DNA of 35,230 bases from an uncultured Clostridia bacterium (lineage in GTDB: Bacteria > Bacillota > Clostridia > Christensenellales > Pumilibacteraceae). Within the stretch, counting starts at the first letter, position 1. The number at the start of each line of letters is the position of its first letter. Below, piece after piece: positions 489 through 27,600 of the stretch. The position numbers were made by a program, and so were the translations under genes. Below the pieces are notes generated by a model. It was not told the DNA's origin. It did not search any database and saw only the letters and a program-made list of their open reading frames with translations. The stretch is from contig CANDGE010000009.1 in NCBI GenBank assembly GCA_947384195.1, positions 1 to 35,230 on the forward strand, read 5' to 3'.

Positions 489-1851
<1,363 letters not shown>

Positions 1852-1887
1852 GTAAACGCCGATCGGCGATATGATCGTACGATATAC

Positions 1888-1920
1888 AAAAGCGATACGG
1901 CTTAGGTCGTGTCGCTTTTT
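1888..1920 (+). terminator. Rho-independent terminator after eno
   Basis: Stem 1888-1901 pairs with 1906-1919 (14 bp with two G-U pairs) around the loop TTAG; the 3' arm ends in a run of T. The arms begin AAAAGCGA and end TCGCTTTT, so it could also act in the reverse direction. Confidence 0.85.
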
Positions 1921-1954
1921 GCGTGTGGCAAATCAAAAATGTAGTTATATATTA

Positions 1955-1983
1955 TTGCAAATTCGTCCGAATTGTTGTATAAT
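1955..1983 (+). promoter_or_regulatory. Sigma-A promoter of the HIT-TCS-thiI operon
   Basis: TTGCAA (1955-1960), a 17-bp spacer and a perfect TATAAT (1978-1983) lie about 50 bp upstream of the HIT gene. The genes that follow overlap or nearly touch up to 7482, so this is the only obvious promoter for seven genes. Confidence 0.75.
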
Positions 1984-2033
1984 ATATTCAAAGTAACGCG
2001 ACCTGTGCGTTTAAACACGTATGCGAGGTATTT

Positions 2034-2387
2034 ATGGACGATTGCATTTTCTGCAAGATCGTTGCGGGCGATATCCCCGCAAAAAAGTATTACGAAGACG
2101 AGCTGATGATCGTTATAGCCGATATTTCGCCCAAAGCAGAAAAACATTATTTGGCTATACCCAAAAAGCATTATAAGCTGTTTTCGGAAATGACCGAAGC
2201 CGATGCCGCCGATTTGGGCAAATGTATTCGCAAGATCGGCGAGATCGCTCCGTCGCTCGGGCTCGAGAACGGTTTCCGTTTTATCGTCAATCAAGGCGAT
2301 GACGCCGAACAAACCGTTTTCCATTTGCATATGCACTTGCTCGGCGGACAAAAGCTGTCTACGCATAGCTATAAGCGCGATGCGTGA
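2034..2387 (+). CDS. HIT family hydrolase (Hint/HinT-like)
   Basis: Small cytoplasmic histidine-triad nucleotide-binding protein of 117 residues, the usual size. Hint-like members hydrolyse phosphoramidate or AMP-linked substrates. It opens with CIFCKIVAGDIPA, typical of the PKCI/Hint branch, and carries the histidine triad H97-L-H99-M-H101, where the middle His is the nucleophile in this family. The ATG at 2034 has GAGGT about 5 bases upstream. It is the first gene after the promoter at 1955-1983 and overlaps the next gene by 8 bases. The physiological substrate cannot be told from sequence. Confidence 0.93.
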   Translation: MDDCIFCKIVAGDIPAKKYYEDELMIVIADISPKAEKHYLAIPKKHYKLFSEMTEADAADLGKCIRKIGEIAPSLGLENGFRFIVNQGDDAEQTVFHLHMHLLGGQKLSTHSYKRDA

Positions 2388-2919
2388 AAAGTCTGTCGTC
2401 ACGAGCGGAGAAAAAGTCGTTAACGCATACAATGAGTCGCGCTTTGTCGATTCGGCGATTGGCGAATATGTTTTCGGCGATATGGGATATCGAAAAGCGT
2501 CGGACGCATTTCGTCGCGAATGCCAGGTGCTGTTTGCGTTGTCTGTCGGTGACGGGCTTGTGGAGCGTCGAGAAGATATGCGCAATTATATTGTCAAAAT
2601 ATTGCTGTATATCGGGCTGTTGCCGCGCGATAACGGGTTTGCGGTAGTGGCGCGTCTTATCGAAACGGCAGCTATTCGCGCCGACATGGAGCTTGAAAGC
2701 GTAATAGACGGTTTTGCGAAAGCGCACGGCGCGGATCGTGCGGCAGTCGAAAGGATAGTCGAAAAGAATTTCGATCCGTACGACGCCGAGCTTGTCGATC
2801 GCGTGACGACGCTTATCGGAACGCAACCGTTTACGGCAAAGGACGTCTTGTGCGATATCGCGGTGTTTGTACGCCTTAGATACTATGACGGGATATATCG
2901 CGATGAACGAGTTTTTTGA
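2380..2919 (+). CDS. Unrecognised protein, possible stand-alone Spo0A C-terminal-like domain (copy 1)
   Basis: The 179-residue product is not confidently assigned. The start is the ATG at 2380, inside the end of the HIT gene (8-base overlap); a longer frame exists upstream but lies inside HIT. No signal peptide or membrane segment is visible. The last ~110 residues can be laid by eye along the helical C-terminal DNA-binding domain of Spo0A: IVKILLYIGLL against the first helix, AAVERIVEKNF against the SRVERAIRHA recognition helix region, LIG against LFG, and VLCDIAVFVRLR against FIAMVADKLRL. No receiver domain precedes it; the N-terminal ~65 residues are not recognised. The next gene has the same pattern, which supports a related pair. 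Without a profile search this remains an inference. Confidence 0.4.
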   Translation: MREKSVVTSGEKVVNAYNESRFVDSAIGEYVFGDMGYRKASDAFRRECQVLFALSVGDGLVERREDMRNYIVKILLYIGLLPRDNGFAVVARLIETAAIRADMELESVIDGFAKAHGADRAAVERIVEKNFDPYDAELVDRVTTLIGTQPFTAKDVLCDIAVFVRLRYYDGIYRDERVF

Positions 2920-3400
2920 AAATAAATACTTAAAATCACGTAAGCTCGATTTTAAAAACTACTCGATAGACGATTTTTTGTATAACGAAACGGCGGTCGA
3001 AAAGTGTGTAGATCTTTCCGCGGTAATGCTTGCGGTATGCGGACTGCTGATTATGTCCGGGTTCGATATACATTTGCGCGGAACGCATTATTTGACGCAG
3101 TTGACAGCCGAGCGTTCCGTAAATGCTTGGTTTTCTCTCGACGAAACGATCGAACGCATAGCGCGAGAAGGCGAAACGGACAGCGCTTCCGTGATAGCGG
3201 AGATAGATGCGGCATTAAAGCGAAATTCGCGTTTCGGCGTTGTGATGTCGAGCTTGCTCGGCGAGTCTGTCGGCGACATTAACGGTCTCGGGCTTGCCGA
3301 TATAACCGAGATAGTCGTCGCCGCATTTAAAATATATTATAACTATGTGACGGATGAGTCCGTTGCGCAAAGGTCGGTCGGTAATGAACAACGAAAGTAA
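2903..3400 (+). CDS. Unrecognised protein, possible stand-alone Spo0A C-terminal-like domain (copy 2)
   Basis: Product of 165 residues from the ATG at 2903, overlapping the previous gene by 17 bases; a TTG at 2867 and an ATG at 2885 are other possible starts. By eye, SGFDIHLRGTHYL resembles the Spo0A segment IGVPAHIKGYLYL, SVIAEIDAALKRN sits where RVERAIRHAIEVA lies, SLLGE matches SLFGY, and ITEIVVAAFKIYY matches the last helix. There is no receiver domain and no clear transmembrane segment. It overlaps the response regulator gene by 17 bases, so the two are probably translationally coupled. If the likeness is real, this would be a DNA-binding output protein; if not, it is an orphan family tied to the neighbouring two-component system. 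Confidence 0.42.
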   Translation: MNEFFENKYLKSRKLDFKNYSIDDFLYNETAVEKCVDLSAVMLAVCGLLIMSGFDIHLRGTHYLTQLTAERSVNAWFSLDETIERIAREGETDSASVIAEIDAALKRNSRFGVVMSSLLGESVGDINGLGLADITEIVVAAFKIYYNYVTDESVAQRSVGNEQRK

Positions 3401-4070
3401 AATAAAGATTTTGATCGTCGACGACGACGAAAATATTTGCAGATTGCTCGAGCTGTATTTAAAGCGCGACGGTTTTGGCGCAGAGTATTGTCATAACGGC
3501 GAAACAGCGTTGTCTAAACTGAATTCCAATAGCTACGACGCAGTTTTTCTCGACGTGATGATGCCCGTAATGGACGGGTTCGAGGTCCTGTCGGCTTTGC
3601 GCAAATTCTCAAACGTGCCCGTTATCATGCTGTCGGCGCGAGGCGAATCGATGGACAAGATATCCGGGCTCGATTGCGGCGCGGACGATTATATAACCAA
3701 GCCGTTCGAGCCGGGTGAGGTAATAGCGCGGTTGCGCGCAGTATTGCGGCGTTTCAAACCCGCGGATGAGATCAAACGTGTAGATCTTTTCAATCTTTCT
3801 GTCAATATTTCCGATTACACCGTCACGCTCGACAACGAAAAGCTCGACATGCCGCCGAAAGAGATAGAGCTGCTGTATATGCTCGTCAAAACGCCGATGC
3901 ACGTTTTTACGCGAGACGATCTTTTAAAAGAAATATGGGGGCAGAGCTATTCGGGCGATTCCCGTACCGTCGACGTGCACATCAAGCGCGTGCGCGAAAA
4001 GCTCGGCGAAAACGCACACTGGCGGCTTACTACCGTATGGGGCGTCGGTTATAAGATAGAAGTTTTTTAA
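3384..4070 (+). CDS. OmpR/PhoB-family response regulator
   Basis: Cytoplasmic two-component response regulator of 228 residues. The receiver domain (about 1-120) has the acidic pair D13/D14, the phospho-acceptor D57 in FLDVMMP, S84 in the switch position and K106 in DDYITKPF. The C-terminal winged helix (about 133-228) ends with the family signature SRTVDVHIKRVREKLG. The ATG at 3384 is preferred over an upstream frame opening at 3354: AAAGG lies about 10 bases before it and the receiver begins immediately. It overlaps the preceding gene by 17 bases and is 14 bases before the kinase gene, its likely partner. Regulon unknown; PhoP/YycF/WalR-like by overall architecture, but none can be singled out. 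Confidence 0.94.
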   Translation: MNNESKIKILIVDDDENICRLLELYLKRDGFGAEYCHNGETALSKLNSNSYDAVFLDVMMPVMDGFEVLSALRKFSNVPVIMLSARGESMDKISGLDCGADDYITKPFEPGEVIARLRAVLRRFKPADEIKRVDLFNLSVNISDYTVTLDNEKLDMPPKEIELLYMLVKTPMHVFTRDDLLKEIWGQSYSGDSRTVDVHIKRVREKLGENAHWRLTTVWGVGYKIEVF

Positions 4071-4084
4071 ACAACGGAGAAAGC

Positions 4085-5227
4085 ATGTCGGATAAACAAT
4101 CCAAATCCAAAAAATTTTACAGATCGCATATTTTCAGGATAATCGTCGGCGCGGTATGCTTGTTTAGTACCGTATTTTTTCCGTTTGTATTTGCTTATCC
4201 TGCCGTCGATCGTATAATGCGCGCGGTGATAATAGGATGTGTGTCGGCGGCGTGCGTTGCCGAGACAGTAATATTTGCCGTTGTTACGCATTTTTGCGTG
4301 TATGCGCGTATCGAACACGCTTCGGATTGTCTTAACGATATGGCCCACGGCGGGATATTGCAAAATATCGACGAATGTGAGTCGGACAACACCGCATCGA
4401 GCGTTGTTGCGGCTGTAAACGCTACCGTCGACGAATATGCAAGACTCGAACAAGTGCGCAAATCGTTCGTTGCCAATGCGTCGCACGAATTGCGTTCGCC
4501 GCTTACGTCGGTACAAGGATTTTTGCAAGCGGCGTTGGACGGTACGGCAGACGATGCAGATAAAGGAAAATATCTCGAGATCGCGTTGAGCGAAACAAAA
4601 AGGCTTAACGGTTTGATTAGTTCAATGCTCGATCTGTCGCGGCTCGATTCGGGTAAAAATCCGCTTGTTATGACCAAATTCAATATAAACGACGTGATAA
4701 ACGACGTCGTCGCAAAATTCGAGCCCACGCTCGTTAAAAAATCGATCCAGACAAATACCGATTTTTCGGCGCCTACTTGTTATGTTTTTGCCGATAAGGA
4801 TAAGATCATACAGGTCATGACAAATCTTATCGATAATGCTATAAAGTATTCGCCCGTGTATTCGCGAATAGAAATCATGACCGAAGTGCATGAAAGCAAA
4901 GTGCAGATAACCGTACGTGATTTCGGCTACGGTATCAGCAAGCGCGATCAAATGTTGATATGGGATAGGTTTTACATGACCGATAAGTCGCGATCGCCCG
5001 TCAAGACCAAGGGCTCGGGATTGGGACTTTCCATAGTAAAAAAGATAATCGACGAGCACGACGAAATAATTTGGGTGGAAAGCAGTCGCGGCGCGGGCGC
5101 GAAATTTATTTTTACTTTGACTTTGTTCGATCCGAACAAGCATAAAGTTTCGACGGGCAACGTTATAAAAACGTCGGACGTCGTCGGCGCAGGCATAACG
5201 GAGACAGATAATGATATACTTGGATAA
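4085..5227 (+). CDS. Sensor histidine kinase with two close transmembrane helices
   Basis: Membrane histidine kinase of 380 residues, partner of the response regulator upstream. Two hydrophobic segments (about 17-38 and 46-69) are separated by under ten residues, so there is practically no extracellular sensor domain; this is the layout of intramembrane-sensing kinases. After a linker without a recognisable PAS domain comes the dimerisation domain with H134 in ASHELRSPLTS, then the ATPase domain with the N box MTNLIDNAIKYSP, G1 DFGYGIS and G2 GSGLGLSIVKKI. CGGAG precedes the ATG. The 3' end overlaps the cysteine desulfurase start by 17 bases. No transporter lies next to it, unlike BceS-type kinases, so the signal is unknown. 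Confidence 0.93.
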   Translation: MSDKQSKSKKFYRSHIFRIIVGAVCLFSTVFFPFVFAYPAVDRIMRAVIIGCVSAACVAETVIFAVVTHFCVYARIEHASDCLNDMAHGGILQNIDECESDNTASSVVAAVNATVDEYARLEQVRKSFVANASHELRSPLTSVQGFLQAALDGTADDADKGKYLEIALSETKRLNGLISSMLDLSRLDSGKNPLVMTKFNINDVINDVVAKFEPTLVKKSIQTNTDFSAPTCYVFADKDKIIQVMTNLIDNAIKYSPVYSRIEIMTEVHESKVQITVRDFGYGISKRDQMLIWDRFYMTDKSRSPVKTKGSGLGLSIVKKIIDEHDEIIWVESSRGAGAKFIFTLTLFDPNKHKVSTGNVIKTSDVVGAGITETDNDILG

Positions 5228-6335
5228 TGCCGCCACGACGCGTGTGTTCGATCGTGCGATATCTGCGGCAAGCGAGGTAATGCGCGAAAGGTTTTACAAC
5301 CCAAACGCTACGTACGAAAGCGGAGTAAAAGCGCGTGAAAGCATAGAACACGCGCGTAGAACGATAGCCGACGCCGTCGGCGCCGCGGCGGACGAGCTGA
5401 TATTTACTTCATGCGCTACCGAGTCCAATAATTGGATTTTCGCTTGCGGCAAGAAGTACAAAAAAGGCAATATAGTTATCACGGCAGGCGAACACGCATC
5501 GGTATACGAACCTGCCATGCAACTTAAAAGTCGCGGCGACGACGTTCGTATTGCGCCGCTTACCGCCGACGGGAATGTGGACGAGAACGCACTTTTAAGT
5601 CTTGTAGACGAAGAAACGTCGCTTGTATCGCTAATACACGTCAACAACGAAACAGGCGTCGTAAACGATATCGAGCGGCTTGTCGCGGCAGTAAAAGCCC
5701 GTTCGCCGCGTGCATACGTGCACAGCGACGGGGTCCAAGGTTTGCTTAAAACGGGTATGCCGTTGCGCGATCTCGGCGTTGATTTTTACAGTGCGAGCGC
5801 GCATAAGCTCGGTGCGCCTAAGGGGATCGGCTTGTTATACGTAAAACACGGAATAAACATATCGCCGTATTTGTCGGGCGGCGGACAGGAGCGTAATCTG
5901 CGTTCCGGCACGCAAAATACGCCGTATATCGCCGCTTTTGCGGCGGCTGTCGAAGAATTCGGTAAAGCGAACGATCGTATGCGGATTTCGGCGTTGCGTG
6001 CAGAGCTGTGCGAATATTTCGTATCGCACGGCTGCAAGATCGTCGGAAATCATAATAATTCGGGATATATCGCTTGCGTGCTAGTACCGAATGTAAAAGC
6101 GGAAATATTGCAAAATGTTGCGCACGACAGCGGAGTCGTTATAGGCAAAGGCGCGGCATGTTCCGGATCTAAGCGCGGCAATCGTGTTTTGAGTGCCATG
6201 GGCTTGAAGCAAAACGAAATAGAAAGCTGTATAAGGTTAAGTTTGTTTGCGGACACAAAGCGCGACGACGCGCTCGAAGCCGCGCACATAATAATCGACG
6301 CGGCGCGTCGGTTGGGGAGTAAACATGTCGGATAA
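5211..6335 (+). CDS. Cysteine desulfurase (NifS/IscS family), partner of ThiI
   Basis: PLP enzyme of 374 residues that takes sulfur from cysteine as a protein persulfide. Seen: MIYLDNAATT at the N-terminus, the HVNNETG motif near 143-149, the PLP lysine K199 in SASAHKLGAPKG, and the catalytic C317 in GKGAACSGS, which marks the short-loop NifS-like group. The start ATG at 5211 follows GGAG and lies 17 bases inside the kinase gene. It overlaps thiI by 11 bases; in Bacillus subtilis the equivalent NifZ donates sulfur to ThiI for 4-thiouridine in tRNA, and the pairing suggests the same job. A role in general Fe-S assembly cannot be excluded. Confidence 0.93.
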   Translation: MIYLDNAATTRVFDRAISAASEVMRERFYNPNATYESGVKARESIEHARRTIADAVGAAADELIFTSCATESNNWIFACGKKYKKGNIVITAGEHASVYEPAMQLKSRGDDVRIAPLTADGNVDENALLSLVDEETSLVSLIHVNNETGVVNDIERLVAAVKARSPRAYVHSDGVQGLLKTGMPLRDLGVDFYSASAHKLGAPKGIGLLYVKHGINISPYLSGGGQERNLRSGTQNTPYIAAFAAAVEEFGKANDRMRISALRAELCEYFVSHGCKIVGNHNNSGYIACVLVPNVKAEILQNVAHDSGVVIGKGAACSGSKRGNRVLSAMGLKQNEIESCIRLSLFADTKRDDALEAAHIIIDAARRLGSKHVG

Positions 6336-7482
6336 CGTTATTTTGATAAGGTTCGGGGAGCTTTATCTCAAAGGCAAAAACAAAGACTACTTCGAGAATA
6401 TTCTTAAAGATAATATACGAAAAAAGCTCGCAGGGCTCGACTGTAAGCTGTATTTCGGGCGCGGACGCTATGTCGTCAAAGATTACGATCGATCGGACGA
6501 AAGCGCCGTTATAGCGCGATTAAAGCAGGTTTTCGGCGTGCATTCCGTGTCGGTTGCACGACGGTGCGGTTATGATATGGACGAGATAGCCGCGCTCGCC
6601 GTCGAGCTTACTCCCGACATCGGCAGTTTCAGAGTAACGGCGCACCGTTCGTATAAAAAATATCCGCTCGATTCGTTGCAGATCAATAAGCAGTTGGGCG
6701 AGCGTATATTACAAGCCAAACCGCAGTTGACCGTCGATCTTCACAGACCCGACTGTGTTTTGCATGTCGAAGTGCGCGAAGACGGCGATGTGTATTTATA
6801 CGACAGCTCGGAGCGTTGCGCCGGCGGTATGCCGTACGGAACCGGCGGTAACGGCTTGTTATTGCTGTCGGGCGGTATAGACAGTCCCGTAGCAGGTTAC
6901 ATGCTCGCCAAGCGCGGTATGAGCATAAAGGCATTGCATTTTCATTCGTATCCGTATACGTCGCAGGCCGCCAAGGAAAAGGCCGTCAAGCTCGCTCGCA
7001 TACTCGGCGAATATTGCCCGAGCATAAAATTGATGTGCGTATCGCTTACCGAGATACAGGAAACTATCCATAAACAATGCAAACCGAACTATATGATAAC
7101 GCTTGTCCGACGCTTTATGATACGTATAGCGAATGAAGCGGCAAAGCAAAACGATTGCGGTTGTATTATAAACGGCGAGAGCTTGGGGCAAGTGGCAAGT
7201 CAGACGTTGGAGAGCATAACCGTAACTAATGCCGTCGCGGATGTGCCTGTTTTTCGTCCGCTCATAGGCATGGATAAGGACGAAATAATCGAGATAGCAC
7301 AAAAAATAGGCTCGTTTGAAACGTCGATCGAGCCGTTTGAAGATTGTTGTACAGTTTTTCTGCCCGAGTTTCCGCTCATCAAGCCGACTGTCGAAAAGGT
7401 CGAGGAACAGGAAGCTCGTATCGAAAATTATAACGAGTTGATACAAAAAGCGCTTGAAAATATCGAATATATCGATCTTTAA
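6325..7482 (+). CDS. thiI: tRNA 4-thiouridine synthetase ThiI (no rhodanese domain)
   Basis: Cytoplasmic enzyme that adenylates U8 of tRNA and replaces its oxygen with sulfur. The 385 residues hold an N-terminal ferredoxin-like and THUMP region (about 1-165), the PP-loop LSGGIDSPVAGYM with SGGID at 182-186, and the C-terminal AANH domain with FEDCCTVFLP. The rhodanese domain of the E. coli enzyme is absent, as in Firmicutes, where the adjacent cysteine desulfurase hands over sulfur directly. The ATG at 6325 has GGGGAG upstream and lies inside the desulfurase gene. It is the last gene of the operon and its stop is one base from the stop of the converging penicillin-binding protein gene. Confidence 0.96.
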   Translation: MSDNVILIRFGELYLKGKNKDYFENILKDNIRKKLAGLDCKLYFGRGRYVVKDYDRSDESAVIARLKQVFGVHSVSVARRCGYDMDEIAALAVELTPDIGSFRVTAHRSYKKYPLDSLQINKQLGERILQAKPQLTVDLHRPDCVLHVEVREDGDVYLYDSSERCAGGMPYGTGGNGLLLLSGGIDSPVAGYMLAKRGMSIKALHFHSYPYTSQAAKEKAVKLARILGEYCPSIKLMCVSLTEIQETIHKQCKPNYMITLVRRFMIRIANEAAKQNDCGCIINGESLGQVASQTLESITVTNAVADVPVFRPLIGMDKDEIIEIAQKIGSFETSIEPFEDCCTVFLPEFPLIKPTVEKVEEQEARIENYNELIQKALENIEYIDL

Positions 7483-7483
7483 G

Positions 7484-9451
7484 CTAATTTTCTTCCCATA
7501 CGAATTTATCGTAAAAATCGATGATATCGATACTTTTTCTGATGGGCAAATGTCGTTTGGAAAGCAATGCGCGCATTCTGTAACGCGCCGGTAATGTTGG
7601 ATCGGCAAGATATACTTCATGCGATTTGTTAAGCTCGCTCGCATCTATCTCGTAATAAGCGACAGAATCGGGCATGCGGAACTTGCCGTTTGTACCCATA
7701 TCGGCGTTGTCGCAAATATATTTGATGATGTTACAACAGCTTGCGCCTGTGATCTTGTTATCGATCAAGCCGTCGGTCGGCGCGCCGAACCAAACGGCGA
7801 TAGTATATTCGGGCGTGTATGCTATGCCGTAGCAGTCGTAATTTCCGTCGGCGTCGCCGTTCGTGCCTGTTTTGGCGGCTATCGCCCCCGAATATTTAAG
7901 CTTTTTAGCCGTGCCTGTTTTGGCGCACTCGCTAAGCATATCCGTCAATAGAAACGCGGTATCTTCTCCGACGGCACGGGTTTTAGTTGTCTCGACAAAA
8001 CGATCGCCGTCAACGGATCCGATCGTTTGCGCATAACAAACGGGCGAGTAAACGCCGTTGTTTGCAAGCGTGCGATATGCGTTTGCAAGCTCCGTCAAAG
8101 TGACGCCGTTTGTCATTCCGCCTAATGCAATCGATAACGAGTCGTCGGTATCGGCGAATGTCAGACCGAACGAGCTCGCGGTGGATTTTGCGGATCCTAC
8201 GCCTGTTTGCTGTAAAAGCTTGACGGCGGCGACGTTTGACGAATATATCAAGCAGTCTTTCAGCGATATATAGCCGCGATAAACGTTTTTGTAATTGCTC
8301 GGCGAATAGTCGCCGAAAACGGTCGGTTCGTCAACGATCTGCGAAAGGGGATTTGCACCGTTTTCGAGCGCCGGAGCGTAGGAAATAAACGGTTTGATCG
8401 TAGATGCGGGCGAGCGGCGCGGATCGATATAGCCGGTCGTATTGGTTTCGTCGCAAACGATATTACCCGAGTCATTGTCGAGAATAAGCACTCGGGCGAC
8501 ATATCGTTCGTCGGTATCGGCGAATTGTGCCAGCGCTTGTCGCGCCGCTGTCGCTATGCTTTTGTCATATGCGGTTTTTATCGTAACGTTTTTGCCGAAT
8601 AACGCTTTTTCGGAGCAATGCAATCGAGCGCAAGCGTCTTTCAAAACTCCCGAAACATATTGGCTTTGCTGGTCCTTGGCGAATACGATATTTTCGTCGA
8701 GCGCCGCAGAATACTCGCTTTCCGAAATATAGCCCTGATCGAGCATTTGACCGAGCACCAACTCCTTACGCCGTGATAGGTTTTGCGGATTGTTATACGG
8801 ACTGTATTTTGACGGATTATTGATAATGGAAGCAAGCGCGGCGGACTGGGCGAGCGTAAGCTCGGATGCGGGCTTACCGAACATGACGCGGCTTGCCGTG
8901 CCGAGTCCGCGTATTCCCGAACCGAAATACAGGATATTCAAATAGCTTTCCAATATTCGGTCTTTGTCGTACACTCGTTCGAGCGCGCGCGCAAGACGAA
9001 TTTCGGTAAGCTTGCGTTTTAAAGTCTTTTCATTGGACAAGTGCGTATTTTTGATAAGCTGTTGCGTTATTGTCGACGCGCCTTCGCGGAAACTGCGCGA
9101 TTTGACGTTCGCAATAAAAGCCGACGCCATTCGTTTATAATCGATCCCGTCATGCTTGTAAAAGCGTTTGTCCTCTATAGCGATAAACGCGTTGAGCGTG
9201 TAGCCGTGCAAGTCGTCTATATCGACGTAGATCTTATTGTTGTCGTACAGCGCGTCATCCAAAGGTTTACCGTTTGCGTCTAAAATCGTTACCGTATCCG
9301 TGTATGATATAAGCTTGTCCGTGTCAAGCTCGGTCGAATCAAACAGCTTGAATTCGGGTTCTATCAACAAAAAGAAAAATCCGACCGTGAGTGCGATCGT
9401 TACGACAAACACCGTTACGCATATCAATGTGATCTTAGCCGATCTTTTCAT
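7484..9451 (-). CDS. Class A penicillin-binding protein (PBP1A type)
   Basis: Bifunctional murein polymerase of 655 residues, anchored by one N-terminal membrane helix (about 7-30). The GT51 glycosyltransferase domain has the catalytic E93 in AIEDKRFYKHDGID and the GASTITQQLIKN motif near 124-135. The transpeptidase domain has S350-TIK353, the SSN motif at 404-406 and KTG at 527-529 (a second KTG at 511 lies in the preceding GTA turn). The protein stops soon after the transpeptidase fold, without a long C-terminal tail. No good ribosome site is visible before the ATG at 9451. It is transcribed alone, with a 297-bp gap upstream, and converges on thiI. Confidence 0.95.
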   Translation of the reverse strand: MKRSAKITLICVTVFVVTIALTVGFFFLLIEPEFKLFDSTELDTDKLISYTDTVTILDANGKPLDDALYDNNKIYVDIDDLHGYTLNAFIAIEDKRFYKHDGIDYKRMASAFIANVKSRSFREGASTITQQLIKNTHLSNEKTLKRKLTEIRLARALERVYDKDRILESYLNILYFGSGIRGLGTASRVMFGKPASELTLAQSAALASIINNPSKYSPYNNPQNLSRRKELVLGQMLDQGYISESEYSAALDENIVFAKDQQSQYVSGVLKDACARLHCSEKALFGKNVTIKTAYDKSIATAARQALAQFADTDERYVARVLILDNDSGNIVCDETNTTGYIDPRRSPASTIKPFISYAPALENGANPLSQIVDEPTVFGDYSPSNYKNVYRGYISLKDCLIYSSNVAAVKLLQQTGVGSAKSTASSFGLTFADTDDSLSIALGGMTNGVTLTELANAYRTLANNGVYSPVCYAQTIGSVDGDRFVETTKTRAVGEDTAFLLTDMLSECAKTGTAKKLKYSGAIAAKTGTNGDADGNYDCYGIAYTPEYTIAVWFGAPTDGLIDNKITGASCCNIIKYICDNADMGTNGKFRMPDSVAYYEIDASELNKSHEVYLADPTLPARYRMRALLSKRHLPIRKSIDIIDFYDKFVWEEN

Positions 9452-24273: not shown

Positions 24274-24648
24274 TTATTTTGTACGCGGGTTGAATACCAG
24301 CGTGACTATATAGCTCATGACTACCGCCGCGCCTACGCCGTACGCCGTGCGTACGAGTCCGCCCGCAAACGCGCCCAAAAACCCTACGGAACGCGCCATT
24401 TCTATCGAACCTTTTGCGAGCGCCGCGCCGAATCCGACTATCGGCACGCTTATGCCCGCCTGACACACCTTGAATATATAATCGTATACGCCGACGCTTT
24501 CCAGTATTATTCCCGCTATAAGAAATATTACGAGAATTCGCGCAGGGGTCAGCTTTGTGCGAATGACCAACAGCTCGGCGATCGCGCACAACGCGCCGCC
24601 CGTCGCAAAAACTATTGCGTAAGTTCCTATGTTTTGCAGTACTTGCAT
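24274..24648 (-). CDS. spoVAE: Stage V sporulation protein AE
   Basis: Small integral membrane protein of 124 residues, part of the SpoVA channel that moves dipicolinic acid into the forespore and out at germination. It has about four hydrophobic segments and the family motifs GGALCAIAELL near the start, ILESVGVYD, and the glycine-rich ISVPIVGFGAALAKG; the tail FAGGLVRTAYGVGAAVVMSYIVTLVF is typical (longer than quoted segments elsewhere, given in two parts: FAGGLVRTAYGVG and AAVVMSYIVTLVF). Start overlaps the spoVAD stop by one base (TAATG). The order spoVAC-spoVAD-spoVAE is the core Clostridia set. Confidence 0.95.
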   Translation of the reverse strand: MQVLQNIGTYAIVFATGGALCAIAELLVIRTKLTPARILVIFLIAGIILESVGVYDYIFKVCQAGISVPIVGFGAALAKGSIEMARSVGFLGAFAGGLVRTAYGVGAAVVMSYIVTLVFNPRTK

Positions 24649-25757
24649 TATTTTTCACCCCCGAACGGACTCTCGACGATAACGGCGTGCGAAATGCACG
24701 GTATGGTTTCGCCCTGATAACAGCTTTGCGTGCTCATCAACGCGCCTGTCGCAAGATACGCGACGCGCCTGTATTCGCCCGAAATAAGCTTTTCCATGAT
24801 GAACGAATTGAAAATAGTTGCCGAGCAAGCGCAACCGCTCCCGCCTTGATAGCATTTTTGTTCGACGTCGTAAATGATATTGCCGCAATCGATATAGTTT
24901 TGACCTAGCTTTATTCCCCGTTCGCGCATCAGATCGCGTAAAATATCCGAGCCGAGCTTGCCGAGATCGCCCGTAACGATCATATCGAAGTCGTTTTCCG
25001 TAAAGCCCGACTGCGTAAGCATGGTATACATAGTATCGAGCGCGGCGGGCGCCATTGCCGCGCCCATGTTGTTGAGATCGTTGACGCCGTAATCGGTGAT
25101 AAGACCGGGGATCGCCGCCACTATCTTGGGAAAGCGTTCGGTCTGTTCGTTGTTTGTCGAAATTACCGACGCCCCCGCGCCCGTGACCGTCCATTGAGCG
25201 TACGGCGGACGTTGACAACCGTATTCCAACGGGTACCTGAACTGCCGTTCCGCCGTCGCGAAATGGCTCGACGCCGCGCAAACGACGTTTTTGTAATACC
25301 CGCTGTCCACAAGCGTCGCCGCAAGCATCAATCCTTCGGTCATAGTCGAACATGCGCCGTATATGCCTATATGCGGTATGCCGAGATCGCGCGCGGCATA
25401 GCTCGACGTAGTCATTTGGTTGAGCAGATCGCCGGAAACCATTACGTCTATATCGTCCAGCCCCAAACGCGCGTCGCGTATCGCGCCGCGGACTGCGGTA
25501 TCGAACATGCGTATCTCCGCGCGCTCGAATGTTTTTTCGCCCATTTTATCGTCGGTTTCGCACTTGGCAAAATATTTGCCGACGGGTCCCTTGCTTTCTT
25601 TTTCCCCTACTACGCTCATTTTGCCGACGATACGCGGCGTGTTGAAAAACCGCATCACGCGTTGTCTCGGCGACGGCGTGCGTAACGGAAATTCGGCGCT
25701 GTTTTGTTCGACTTGCGTTTCGGCGGTATTCTTGTTCGATCTTTTAAACAGCGACAT
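24648..25757 (-). CDS. spoVAD: Stage V sporulation protein AD, with N-terminal extension
   Basis: Thiolase-fold protein of 369 residues on the inner spore membrane; SpoVAD binds dipicolinic acid. Family parts: GPVGKYFAK near residue 60, DVMVSGDLLNQM, GIYGACSTMTEGL, FRYPLEYGCQRPP and GGSGCACSATIF. The start is the ATG at 25757, overlapping the spoVAC stop (TAATG). Family members start near the FNTPRIVGKM segment, so about 33 residues precede the usual start; this extra part is polar and rich in Lys, Arg, Asn and Gln, without known motif. No other start fits better, because the next methionine lies directly before that segment without an evident ribosome site. Confidence 0.95.
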   Translation of the reverse strand: MSLFKRSNKNTAETQVEQNSAEFPLRTPSPRQRVMRFFNTPRIVGKMSVVGEKESKGPVGKYFAKCETDDKMGEKTFERAEIRMFDTAVRGAIRDARLGLDDIDVMVSGDLLNQMTTSSYAARDLGIPHIGIYGACSTMTEGLMLAATLVDSGYYKNVVCAASSHFATAERQFRYPLEYGCQRPPYAQWTVTGAGASVISTNNEQTERFPKIVAAIPGLITDYGVNDLNNMGAAMAPAALDTMYTMLTQSGFTENDFDMIVTGDLGKLGSDILRDLMRERGIKLGQNYIDCGNIIYDVEQKCYQGGSGCACSATIFNSFIMEKLISGEYRRVAYLATGALMSTQSCYQGETIPCISHAVIVESPFGGEK

Positions 25758-26230
25758 TATTTCATCCCCAGTATCAAAAGGTTGATAAGCCCCGCGACAG
25801 ACGACCATACTATGCCGTTGACTACGACCGGACCTACGACAGAAAAAAGCTTTACGCTCGTACCGAATATCAAGCCTTCGGTCTTGAATTCCATGGACGC
25901 GCTTGCCATTGCGTTTGCAAAACCCGTAATGGGCAAAAACGAGCCCGCTCCGCCTTGACGCGCGATCACATCGAAAAAGCCGAGCCCCGTAAACAGTATG
26001 GCAACGGTCACCAATATCATGGATGTGATGTTGGAAACCATATCGGTCGGCATAGTCGGCGAAATGAGTTTGACTATATCGCCTATTCCCTGTCCTATGA
26101 CGCAGGTAAGTCCGCCTACCGCAAAGCTGTGAAAAAGCGCTTTGGGTATGCTCGTTTTGGGCGTAACTGTTTCTACGTATTTGTTGTAGCGCTCATTGCG
26201 CGCTTTGACGGCATTCGTATTCTCCGACAT
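25757..26230 (-). CDS. spoVAC: Stage V sporulation protein AC
   Basis: Integral membrane protein of 157 residues, the mechanosensitive channel component of the SpoVA complex. After a polar N-terminus come several hydrophobic segments; the family signature is GAGSFLPITGFANAMASASMEFKTEG (seen as GAGSFLPITGFANAM, then EFKTEG) and KLFSVVGPVVVNGI. The ATG at 26230 has GGAG 5-6 bases upstream, and that site overlaps the TAG of a 32-codon frame. A candidate sigma-G promoter lies at 26343-26373. Confidence 0.95.
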   Translation of the reverse strand: MSENTNAVKARNERYNKYVETVTPKTSIPKALFHSFAVGGLTCVIGQGIGDIVKLISPTMPTDMVSNITSMILVTVAILFTGLGFFDVIARQGGAGSFLPITGFANAMASASMEFKTEGLIFGTSVKLFSVVGPVVVNGIVWSSVAGLINLLILGMK

Positions 26231-26238
26231 GATCTCTC

Positions 26239-26337
26239 CTACAACTTTTCGCGCGGCTTATCTTTTTTCGGCGCCCATTGCTCGCGTTCCGATACTACCG
26301 TAAGCCCTTCGCCTATGTGATTTCCCGAATTTTTCAT
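26239..26337 (-). CDS. Small ORF of 32 codons before spoVAC
   Basis: ATG at 26337 to TAG at 26239 encodes a polar 32-residue peptide with one Trp, ending in a Lys/Asp/Pro/Arg-rich tail (KKDKPREKL). The TAG sits within the ribosome site of spoVAC (TAGGAG), the layout expected for translational coupling. Against it: there is no ribosome site before the ATG, and the candidate sigma-G promoter would start transcription about at the ATG, so it would be leaderless or simply an untranslated leader. No family recognised. Confidence 0.35.
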   Translation of the reverse strand: MKNSGNHIGEGLTVVSEREQWAPKKDKPREKL

Positions 26338-26342
26338 ATAAT

Positions 26343-26373
26343 TAATTTGTCGTAGAGAATGCGATAATATTCA
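26343..26373 (-). promoter_or_regulatory. Candidate sigma-G promoter of spoVA operon
   Basis: On the minus strand TGAATA (26368-26373), an 18-bp spacer and CAAATTA (26343-26349) resemble the sigma-G consensus (gaATR, 17-18 bp, CATnmTA). The spoVA operon belongs to the sigma-G regulon in B. subtilis. It lies downstream of the sigF terminator and about 110 bases before spoVAC. Confidence 0.5.
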
Positions 26374-26393
26374 ATCGGCGGTCAAAAAACCGC

Positions 26394-26426
26394 AAAAAAA
26401 TAAAAGGTACCGCAAAATACCTTTTA
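26394..26426 (-). terminator. Rho-independent terminator after sigF
   Basis: Minus-strand stem TAAAAGGTA / TACCTTTTA (26426-26418 with 26409-26401) around an 8-base loop, followed by seven T (26400-26394). It separates spoIIA-sigF from the spoVA operon. A second small stem (GCGGT/ACCGC) lies just beyond. Confidence 0.85.
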
Positions 26427-26452
26427 TCCCGATATGCCGTTGAAAGTAGACG

Positions 26453-27172
26453 CTAACCGTTTTCGGCGTATTCCGTGCGCATTTTGACTAAAATCTTGTT
26501 TTCCAAGCGCGATATCTGCACTTGCGAAACGTGTAAAACGCGTGCGACCTCCGATTGCGTTTTATCGGCAAAGTATCGCAAAAGAATGATCTTTTTATCG
26601 CGCGCGGGAAGATCGTTGAGCATTTTTTTGAGCATCATTTTATCGAGTTTTTCTTCCTCGTTTTCCGCCGTTTGAAGTTTATCGAGCAGAGTACGCGAAT
26701 TATCGTCGTTGCTGTCGTAAATGGATACGGGATATCTGCCCGAATCCATGATGAATACGGCTTCCTGCGGCTCGATGCCGAACTTTTCGGCTATGACGTC
26801 TATCGTCGGCGATTCGCCGTTTTCGTGCTTATATTCTTCTGTAAACCGCGCTATTTTGATTGCGGCGGCTTTTGTTCCGCGCGACACTTTGATAGGTCCG
26901 TCGTCGCGCAAAAAACGTTTCACTTCGCCGGCGATCATCGGTACGGCATAAGTGGAAAATCTCACGTCGAACGCCGTAGAAAAGTTTTTAATCGCCTTGA
27001 TAAACCCTACGCAACCAAGCTGATAAAGATCGTCGTATTCCACGCCTTTGTTTTTATAGCGACGTATCACCGACTTTATCAGCGGAGAATTATCGGTAAG
27101 CAGTTGCTCGCTCGCCGTTTTGTCGCCGTGCTGAGCGCGGTCTATCAGTTTAAGTGTTTCTTCTCTTTCCAA
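26453..27172 (-). CDS. sigF: RNA polymerase sigma factor SigF (forespore)
   Basis: Sigma-70 family factor of 239 residues for early forespore transcription. Region 2 is YDDLYQLGCVGFIKAIKNF and VRFSTYAVPMIAGEVKRFLRDDGPIKVSR (shown in parts: FSTYAVPMIAGEVKRF); region 4 has KKIILLRYF and the helix-turn-helix TQSEVARVLHVSQVQISRLE. Sigma-G is similar in sequence; the place behind spoIIAA-spoIIAB identifies this one as sigma-F. The start is a TTG at 27172 with GAGGTG just upstream; no ATG is available, and the gene start overlaps spoIIAB by 28 bases. It should be held inactive by SpoIIAB until SpoIIAA is dephosphorylated. Confidence 0.94.
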   Translation of the reverse strand: MEREETLKLIDRAQHGDKTASEQLLTDNSPLIKSVIRRYKNKGVEYDDLYQLGCVGFIKAIKNFSTAFDVRFSTYAVPMIAGEVKRFLRDDGPIKVSRGTKAAAIKIARFTEEYKHENGESPTIDVIAEKFGIEPQEAVFIMDSGRYPVSIYDSNDDNSRTLLDKLQTAENEEEKLDKMMLKKMLNDLPARDKKIILLRYFADKTQSEVARVLHVSQVQISRLENKILVKMRTEYAENG

Positions 27173-27600
27173 TCCGCACCTCGTATCGTTTTTATCATGG
27201 TAACCACCGTACCCGACGGTGTGTTATGCTCCACCTTCAACGAATCCATAAAAGATTCCATTACGGTAAAGCCCATGCCGCTCCGTTCCTGATCGGGTTT
27301 GGTCGTATAAAACGGCTGTACGGCATCGTCGATATTGTCTATGCCGACGCCCGTATCGGAAACGACGATATGTACGGAGTTATCCATGATAGTCGTGGTG
27401 ACGGTTATCTTATTGTCTGCGGTGTTATCGGGATAAGCGTGGACTATACAGTTGGTCACGGCTTCCGACACGGCTGTTTTTATATCGTTGATTTGGTCGA
27501 CGGTCGGGTCGAGCGTAACGCAAAACGCCGCAACCGTATTGCGAGCGAATGCTTCGTTTTCCGACAAAGCGTCGAAAATAACAGTCATTTCGTTTTTCAT
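27145..27600 (-). CDS. spoIIAB: Anti-sigma F factor / serine kinase SpoIIAB
   Basis: GHKL-ATPase of 151 residues that binds sigma-F or, with ATP, phosphorylates SpoIIAA. Motifs: N box SEAVTNCIVHAYP, G1 SDTGVGIDNI, and the lid/G2 RSGMGFTVMESFMD. The ATG at 27600 is 3 bases after the spoIIAA stop. The last 9 codons overlap the start of sigF, so the two are made together, which fits a 1:1-type inhibitor and target. Confidence 0.96.
   Translation of the reverse strand: MKNEMTVIFDALSENEAFARNTVAAFCVTLDPTVDQINDIKTAVSEAVTNCIVHAYPDNTADNKITVTTTIMDNSVHIVVSDTGVGIDNIDDAVQPFYTTKPDQERSGMGFTVMESFMDSLKVEHNTPSGTVVTMIKTIRGADWKEKKHLN

What the first reader, a model, noticed from the sequence alone, without database searches (positions are those of the whole stretch)
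2380..3400. Tandem stand-alone proteins resembling the Spo0A DNA-binding domain, without receiver
Two adjacent overlapping genes encode 179- and 165-residue proteins whose last ~110 residues can be aligned by eye with the Spo0A C-terminal domain (IHLRGTHYL against AHIKGYLYL; AAVERIVEKNF and SVIAEIDAALK against the RVERAIRHA helix; LIG/LLG against LFG; a matching last helix). They appear to be diverged duplicates lacking a phospho-acceptor domain and are embedded in an operon with a two-component system. If true, they could be unphosphorylated rivals, partners or modulators of Spo0A, or a separate output branch of the adjacent kinase.
Basis: inference. Interest (0 to 1): 0.75.

Follow-up and report, generated by a model that had tools for sequence, protein, structure and literature searches.

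The report
Receiver-less Spo0A-type protein pair
Two neighbouring genes in a gut Clostridia bacterium encode small, strongly diverged relatives of the DNA-binding half of Spo0A, the sporulation master switch, without the half that receives phosphate; the pair is kept across its genus beside a two-component system, and its likely DNA-contact surface has been worn away, so it may now work by protein contacts.

Summary
P1 (2380-2919, 179 aa) and P2 (2903-3400, 165 aa) are overlapping genes under purifying selection in an apparent operon HIT-P1-P2-RR-HK-cysteine desulfurase-thiI. Neither matches Pfam or NCBIfam alone. Their family profiles, however, match a profile of 62 short Spo0A_C proteins over the whole domain (hhalign 96.0% and 96.9%; shuffles and eight other genes of the region give nothing similar), and searches link them in both directions. 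No receiver was matched.

The pair occurs in 18 of 20 genomes of the genus of Anaerocaecibacter muris, each time with this regulator. No P1 orthologue was found outside the genus in 297 sampled genomes of the order.

P1 and P2 have on average lost the positive charge of Spo0A_C; P1 keeps one recognition-helix basic position and reverses another, P2 keeps none at the first and 3 of 18 at the second. I infer a repurposed pair acting mainly through protein contacts; partners and function are untested. Receiver-less Spo0A is known in gut phages (PMC10294663), so this is a new variant of a known kind.

The parts
1955..1983 (+). sigma-70-type promoter-like site (TTGCAA-17-TATAAT) upstream of the HIT gene; possible start of the operon
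   Evidence: consensus scan, 10 of 12 matches; 11 such sites found in 1700-7700 against a shuffle mean of 8.1, so weak on its own
2034..2387 (+). HIT-family hydrolase gene, first gene of the apparent operon
   Evidence: Pfam HIT 3.9e-21; overlaps P1 by 8 bases
2380..2919 (+). P1: 179-aa receiver-less Spo0A_C-type protein
   Evidence: profile-profile match 96.9% to short Spo0A_C proteins; found at E 9.3e-6 by a Spo0A_C profile that holds neither P1 nor P2; dN/dS 0.12-0.23 in 7 ortholog pairs
2578..2889 (+). P1 Spo0A_C-like domain, residues 67-170
   Evidence: hhalign range
2737..2772 (+). P1 segment aligned with the Spo0A recognition helix (residues 120-131): R125 at the R214 position, E128 at the R217 position, K129 at the H218 position (B. 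subtilis numbering and contact roles recalled)
   Evidence: 18 orthologues: R14 H4; E15 D3; K12 R3 S2 N1
2903..3400 (+). P2: 165-aa receiver-less Spo0A_C-type protein
   Evidence: profile-profile match 96.0%; 5 of 18 orthologues, not the window's own, found by the Spo0A_C profile A7; reverse search; dN/dS 0.07-0.26 in 7 ortholog pairs
3023..3334 (+). P2 Spo0A_C-like domain, residues 41-144
   Evidence: hhalign range
3182..3217 (+). P2 segment aligned with the Spo0A recognition helix (residues 94-105): A99, D102, A103 at the R214, R217, H218 positions
   Evidence: 18 orthologues: G7 A4 D3 S3 N1; N8 K3 T2 D1 E1 V1 A1 L1; G6 A4 T2 E2 K2 S1 F1
3384..4070 (+). OmpR/PhoB-type response regulator (receiver and winged helix)
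   Evidence: Pfam Response_reg 8.5e-30, Trans_reg_C 2.7e-24; start overlaps P2 by 17 bases
4085..5227 (+). histidine kinase of the PhoR/WalK/PnpS type
   Evidence: Pfam HisKA 2.2e-19, HATPase_c 5.9e-23; best NCBIfam matches PnpS, WalK, PhoR, all below their cut-offs
5211..6335 (+). cysteine desulfurase-like gene, overlaps the kinase gene
   Evidence: Pfam Aminotran_5 4.3e-61; ORF table
6325..7482 (+). thiI-like gene (name recognised by eye), overlaps the desulfurase gene
   Evidence: ORF table; found downstream in 12 of 14 named loci

Best explanation
P1 and P2 are two chromosomal, receiver-less, strongly diverged Spo0A_C-type proteins (shown by sequence profiles, about 0.93). They probably arose by duplication of a short Spo0A_C gene in the ancestor of this genus and settled between a HIT gene and a two-component system (inferred). 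They are probably transcribed and translated together with that system (inferred from overlaps). Having no receiver, they cannot be switched by phosphorylation of a receiver of their own; their level would follow operon expression. I infer that the domain has been repurposed: both have on average lost the net positive charge of Spo0A_C, P2 has lost most DNA-reading residues and P1 has reversed one of them, so the pair most likely works as co-made partners (perhaps a P1-P2 complex) that modulate another protein - Spo0A, another Spo0A_C protein, or the adjacent regulator or kinase - with P1 possibly keeping weak or altered DNA contact.
For: Homology: hhalign 96.0% and 96.9% over 104 columns against 62 short Spo0A_C proteins, no shuffle near it; eight other proteins of the region all under 2% (the PBP control is one sequence, the others 13-15). 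Forward: a 61-sequence Spo0A_C profile (A7) with neither P1 nor P2 finds 5 of 18 P1 and 5 of 18 P2 orthologues, nine of them at E 5e-9 to 2.8e-4, among them P0001 at 9.3e-6. Reverse: the P1 profile's one non-orthologue match at E<=1 in 74 genomes (2.5e-5) is a PF08769 protein (6.4e-14); the P2 profile's six non-orthologue matches at E<=0.005 in 74 genomes all lie on places found by PF08769 (4) or A7 (2). A7 itself hits the solved Spo0A DNA-binding domain 1lq1 at 3.4e-27. Pairing: 18 of 18 genus genomes with the regulator have both genes; P1-P2 gaps of -32 to -1 bases in 15 loci; highest partial distance correlation (0.60) of 15 gene pairs. Charge: domain mean +2.1 Spo0A (35), +3.0 short Spo0A_C (62), -1.2 P1 (18), -1.2 P2 (18); recognition-helix columns.
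Against: Neither window protein hits Pfam or NCBIfam at E<=10; among P1 orthologues two unrelated Pfam families score slightly better than Spo0A_C (0.043, 0.045 against 0.15). Against canonical Spo0A domains alone the profile match is weak (P2 37%, P1 4%), so the link rests on intermediate relatives. 26 of 36 pair members, the window's P2 among them, were not found by A7 at E<=10, and the tenth hit (0.0132) lies among probable chance hits. Five further P2-profile matches at E 0.04-0.31 include only one known Spo0A_C place. No fold model. The modulator role rests on charge and residue loss only: a shifted alignment in the recognition helix (gapped at its end) or another DNA-binding mode would undo it. 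Charge ranges overlap (P1 -5 to +3, P2 -9 to +2, short Spo0A_C -6 to +12). The 0.60 partial correlation has close rivals (P2 with an upstream gene 0.54) and the control sets differ between pairs. No partner was identified.
Confidence: 0.4

Rival explanations
1. P1 (alone or with P2) is a constitutively active sequence-specific DNA-binding regulator with changed specificity, acting like a receiver-less Spo0A on its own set of promoters.
For: P1 has R or H at the R214 position in 18 of 18 (R14 H4) and K or R at the H218 position in 15 of 18; other short Spo0A_C proteins keep on average a positive domain and recognition segment, so DNA binding is the likely ancestral role.
Against: Charge reversal at the R217 position (E15 D3 of 18), mean domain charge -1.2; no 0A-box-like site (up to one mismatch; consensus recalled) at the operon promoter, the nearest ones lying inside P1 at 2443 and 2590.
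Confidence: 0.25
2. The pair competes with Spo0A for 0A boxes or for its dimer partner and so delays sporulation.
For: The genome keeps full-length Spo0A (PF08769 2.4e-42; TIGR02875 2.6e-80), and receiver-less Spo0A of phages has been proposed not to need the normal host signals (PMC10294663, passages read).
Against: The recognition residues are not kept in P2 and only partly in P1; the profile match is far better to other short proteins than to Spo0A. Competition through protein contact stays open.
Confidence: 0.15
3. The pair is a dedicated accessory of the adjacent kinase-regulator system only, with no link to Spo0A signalling.
For: Present in 18 of 18 genus genomes that have the regulator; the two genus genomes without the pair (84% and 78% complete) also lack the regulator; overlapping genes.
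Against: The regulator stands without P1/P2-like genes in the 12 sister-genus loci read of 17, so it does not need them; operon position can be chance fixation.
Confidence: 0.18
4. The resemblance to Spo0A_C is a chance likeness of small helical proteins.
For: No direct Pfam hit for either protein; identity to the profile only 15-16%.
Against: Shuffle, reverse and neighbour controls, and searches in both directions.
Confidence: 0.04

Closest known systems
Spo0A (TIGR02875), C-terminal effector domain Spo0A_C (PF08769; solved as 1lq1, 1fc3)
   Same: The whole effector domain is homologous by profile through short relatives; the positions of the recognition helix and of the LFG motif correspond.
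   Different: No receiver, 15-16% identity to the short-protein profile, negative mean charge, recognition-helix residues lost (P2) or reversed (P1).
Truncated spo0A of human-gut phages (PMC10294663; passages read)
   Same: Effector domain without the receiver.
   Different: Here in a conserved chromosomal gene order of one genus, in two adjacent copies, and with no relative found in viral contigs.
Short Spo0A_C proteins of the same bacterial family (unnamed; collected here)
   Same: Effector domain alone or nearly so, 104-182 aa in the 62 collected, sometimes in tandem.
   Different: They were found with PF08769 itself (E<=0.004, several below its cut-off), keep on average a positive charge and more often the recognition-helix arginines (R or K in 47 of 62 and R in 41 of 62).

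Membership tests
Spo0A (full regulator) | N-terminal receiver domain | tested here: not met
   no receiver family matched in 18 P2 and 18 P1 members at E<=10
Spo0A (full regulator) | TIGR02875 equivalog match | tested here: not met
   no NCBIfam match for P1 or P2 at E<=10
Spo0A_C domain family | PF08769 match above the curated cut-off | tested here: not met
   none for the window proteins; 1 of 18 P2 members at 0.027 and 1 of 18 P1 members at 0.15
Spo0A_C superfamily | profile-level homology over the whole domain | tested here: met
   hhalign 96.0% and 96.9% over 104 columns with controls; searches in both directions
Spo0A_C superfamily | six-helix effector fold | not testable with these tools
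   structure prediction switched off
Spo0A_C superfamily | recognition-helix residues that read the 0A box (contacts recalled, not from a call) | tested here: not met
   P2: 0 of 18 basic at the R214 position, 3 of 18 at the R217 position; P1: R14 H4 and then E15 D3
Spo0A_C superfamily | binding of a TTTGTCRAA-like box | not testable with these tools
   needs a binding assay
Phage-borne truncated spo0A | carried by a phage | tested here: not met
   conserved chromosomal gene order in 15 loci; no relative in viral contigs for the P1 and P2 queries used (subsets of 10 and 8 orthologues)

The most novel reading that the evidence does not exclude
A Spo0A-type DNA-binding domain was duplicated, stripped of its DNA-reading surface and turned into a two-subunit protein-contact module wired into a two-component operon, giving one bacterial genus a phosphorylation-independent link between that system and the Spo0A network (Spo0A or its short paralogues).
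Probability: 0.25. Interest if true: 0.75.

Novelty: new variant of a known kind. Interest (0 to 1): 0.5.

Why it matters
Spo0A_C has been used as the mark that sets Spo0A apart from other response regulators (PMC6136694, passages read). In this order 135 of 198 sampled genomes carry two or more Spo0A_C matches at E<=1e-4 (hand count; at least some second copies are full length), and in the window's family many matches lie in open frames too short for a receiver. Gut Clostridia may thus run a wider Spo0A-type regulatory family than one master regulator. The pair described here is a strongly diverged branch of it, kept across a genus, and its place beside a kinase-regulator pair gives a concrete site at which to ask how receiver-less members are controlled. 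It also shows that such proteins can fall below Pfam detection.

Tried and rejected
Direct Pfam and NCBIfam searches with the two proteins, and a PDB search with P2: nothing. PDB searches with the P1 and P2 profiles: stathmins, designed repeats and other helical segments, best E 0.0046 and 0.0013, rejected as likeness of helical segments. PHROGs: nothing for P1/P2; six other short Spo0A_C proteins tried all hit phrog_24603, and four of them phrog_37855 at E<=3e-6. Viral origin of the pair: no relative in viral contigs. 0A boxes (consensus recalled): 42 sites with up to one mismatch in the window against 25.9 expected (2 of 100 shuffles reach 42), but none at the operon promoter; not used. Promoter and terminator counts are near those of shuffles. 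First genome-contig scan with P2 alone: no relative. Literature, by search listings: on stand-alone or receiver-less Spo0A gave one precedent, the phage paper (passages read); the Epulopiscium paper (passages read) concerns ordinary Spo0A, for contact residues, gave nothing useful, so those roles are recalled, on the taxon, listed four papers, none opened. The tree placement of the pair next to the C83-type short proteins has support 66 only and is not claimed.

Full report
What is there. The plus strand encodes P1 (2380-2919, 179 aa) and P2 (2903-3400, 165 aa), overlapping by 17 bases; P1 overlaps the HIT gene before it by 8 bases and the response-regulator start (3384) overlaps P2 by 17 bases. 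A histidine kinase (4085-5227), a cysteine desulfurase-like gene (5211-6335) and a thiI-like gene (6325-7482, named by eye) follow, each close to or overlapping the one before. The best-scoring upstream promoter-like site, TTGCAA-17-TATAAT at 1955-1983, lies before the HIT gene, but such sites are near chance frequency here. I read this as one operon (inference). Its genus is placed through genome G016, whose P2 is identical to that of the record of Anaerocaecibacter muris (L055); NCBI puts Anaerocaecibacter in Pumilibacteraceae.

Are the genes real? Orthologues of both were found in 18 of 20 genomes of the genus (the two without, G003 and G007, are 84% and 78% complete and also lack the regulator). 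In the 14 named loci and the window the gene order HIT-P1-P2-regulator-kinase is the same. dN/dS estimates for seven ortholog pairs are 0.12-0.23 for P1 and 0.07-0.26 for P2. Both evolve fast: mean pairwise differences 0.56 and 0.55 against 0.22-0.28 for HIT, regulator, kinase and an upstream gene.

Are they Spo0A_C relatives? Alone they match no Pfam or NCBIfam model at E<=10. Among orthologues, Spo0A_C is the best of the 10 Pfam families matched by any P2 member (0.027, 1 of 18) and the third of the 6 matched by any P1 member (0.15, 1 of 18; two unrelated families at 0.043 and 0.045), out of 24,736 families; three of 18 P2 orthologues ring at E 0.07-0.37 in a genome search with PF08769. The decisive step was to collect short Spo0A_C proteins that PF08769 itself finds in the same bacterial family (E<=0.004). 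Profile comparison with 62 of them gave 96.0% (P2) and 96.9% (P1) over 104 columns each; 100 column shuffles of each reached scores of at most 22.4 and 23.1 against 58.5 and 67.5, reversed profiles 15.1 and 23.8. Eight other genes of the same region gave probabilities below 2%. Against canonical Spo0A domains alone the match is weak: 37% for P2, 4% for P1. A profile of 61 short proteins (A7), containing neither P1 nor P2, found 5 of 18 P1 and 5 of 18 P2 orthologues; nine have E 5e-9 to 2.8e-4, P0001 among them at 9.3e-6, and the tenth (0.0132) lies among probable chance hits; 26 of 36, the window's P2 included, were not found at E<=10. In reverse, the P1 profile's only non-orthologue match at E<=1 in 74 genomes (2.5e-5, G063, another genus) is a PF08769 protein (6.4e-14). 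The P2 profile's six non-orthologue matches at E<=0.005 in 74 genomes all coincide with places found by PF08769 (4) or A7 (2); of five more at E 0.04-0.31 only one does. A7 hits the solved Spo0A effector domain at 3.4e-27.

How the domain has changed. In the merged alignment the Spo0A helix VERAIRHA aligns with P1 VTRIIEK-like and P2 VIGCING-like segments. At the R214 position (B. subtilis numbering and DNA-contact role recalled) P1 has R14 H4 and P2 G7 A4 D3 S3 N1; at the R217 position P1 has E15 D3 and P2 N8 K3 T2 D1 E1 V1 A1 L1; at the H218 position P1 has K12 R3 S2 N1 and P2 G6 A4 T2 E2 K2 S1 F1 (18 each). The 35 Spo0A have R, R, H without exception; the 62 short proteins have R36 K11 at the first and R41 at the second. 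Mean net domain charge is +2.1 for 35 Spo0A, +3.0 for 62 short proteins, -1.2 for P1 and -1.2 for P2; the recognition segment is +1.0, +1.4, -0.3, -0.7. Ranges overlap. This suggests lost or altered DNA binding, more so in P2.

Origin. P1 and P2 form sister clades (ultrafast bootstrap 89) apart from the short proteins, in keeping with duplication, but both are diverged and their direct profile match is only 56%. The P1 profile matches 6 of 297 sampled genomes of the order at E<=0.001, all of the same genus; P1 and P2 queries found nothing in viral contigs. The regulator is more widespread: it has orthologues in 35 of 74 genomes of the family at E<=1e-60, 17 of them outside the genus, and in the 12 of those 17 loci that I read (0.6-1.5 kb upstream of the regulator) no frame of 60 aa or more matches the P1, P2 or short Spo0A_C profile at E<=0.1; a kinase frame follows in 11 of the 12, the other locus ending there; in 10 of 12 the upstream frame looks like MutS2 (by eye). 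So the pair probably joined an existing system.

How it most likely works. Shown: homology, lack of receiver, pairing, neighbourhood, mean loss of charge. Inferred: operon co-expression, a P1-P2 complex (partial distance correlation 0.60, the highest of 15 gene pairs, the next 0.54, with control sets that differ), and action through protein contact rather than DNA reading. The target could be Spo0A (full-length copy on C51), one of at least five short Spo0A_C proteins in this genome (C83, C107, two on C127, C48, the last two matches below the Pfam cut-off), or the adjacent kinase or regulator. I cannot choose between targets with the data at hand.

What is known. Human-gut phages carry truncated spo0A with the effector but not the receiver domain (PMC10294663; passages read). 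I found no paper in this library on chromosomal receiver-less Spo0A_C proteins, which does not prove there is none. In the order, 182 of 198 sampled genomes match PF08769 and 135 of 198 have two or more matches at E<=1e-4 (hand count; at least some second copies are full length). The finding is therefore a new variant of a known kind: a diverged, genus-conserved, two-gene, receiver-less branch with a worn DNA-contact surface, fixed beside a two-component system.

Noticed in passing
G000 contig C83 = L142:5122-5487 (+): A short Spo0A_C protein (PF08769 2.6e-10) lies about 590 bases downstream of a spore-germination gene set: GerA 708-2120 and GerAC 3343-4533 by Pfam, a GerB-like frame between them by eye.
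   Followed up: partly
G000 contig C127 = L144:2793-3194 and 3292-3675 (+); similar pairs on G009:C3 (L146), G027:C8 (L129), G016:C6 (L149): Tandem pairs of short Spo0A_C genes recur at other sites and in other genomes, so tandem arrangement is not peculiar to the window.
   Followed up: partly
G027 (97% complete), G082, G086; G056, G109, G144, G156, G214, G251, G252: In these genomes no Spo0A_C match is as strong as a canonical Spo0A (best E 1.3e-12 to 8.5e-25), although weaker matches remain (short frames seen for G027, G082, G086). Possible loss of the master regulator with paralogues kept, or missing contigs.
   Followed up: no
L055:7869-8582 (+); no room for it at 5211-5227 of the window, nor in L054: A 237-aa frame that looks like a membrane protein sits between the kinase and desulfurase genes in L055. 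The gap between these genes is about 570-724 bases in 12 of 13 named loci that show both genes, but none in L054 or the window. The frames in the other loci were not read.
   Followed up: partly
window 24274-27600 (-): Frames that look by eye like SpoVAC, SpoVAD, SpoVAE, sigma-F and SpoIIAB, so the organism carries sporulation genes.
   Followed up: no
proteins 3-8; Phage families phrog_24603 and phrog_37855, listed as unknown function, match short Spo0A_C proteins; 13 gut phage records without annotation encode a relative of L102:2413-2841.
   Followed up: partly
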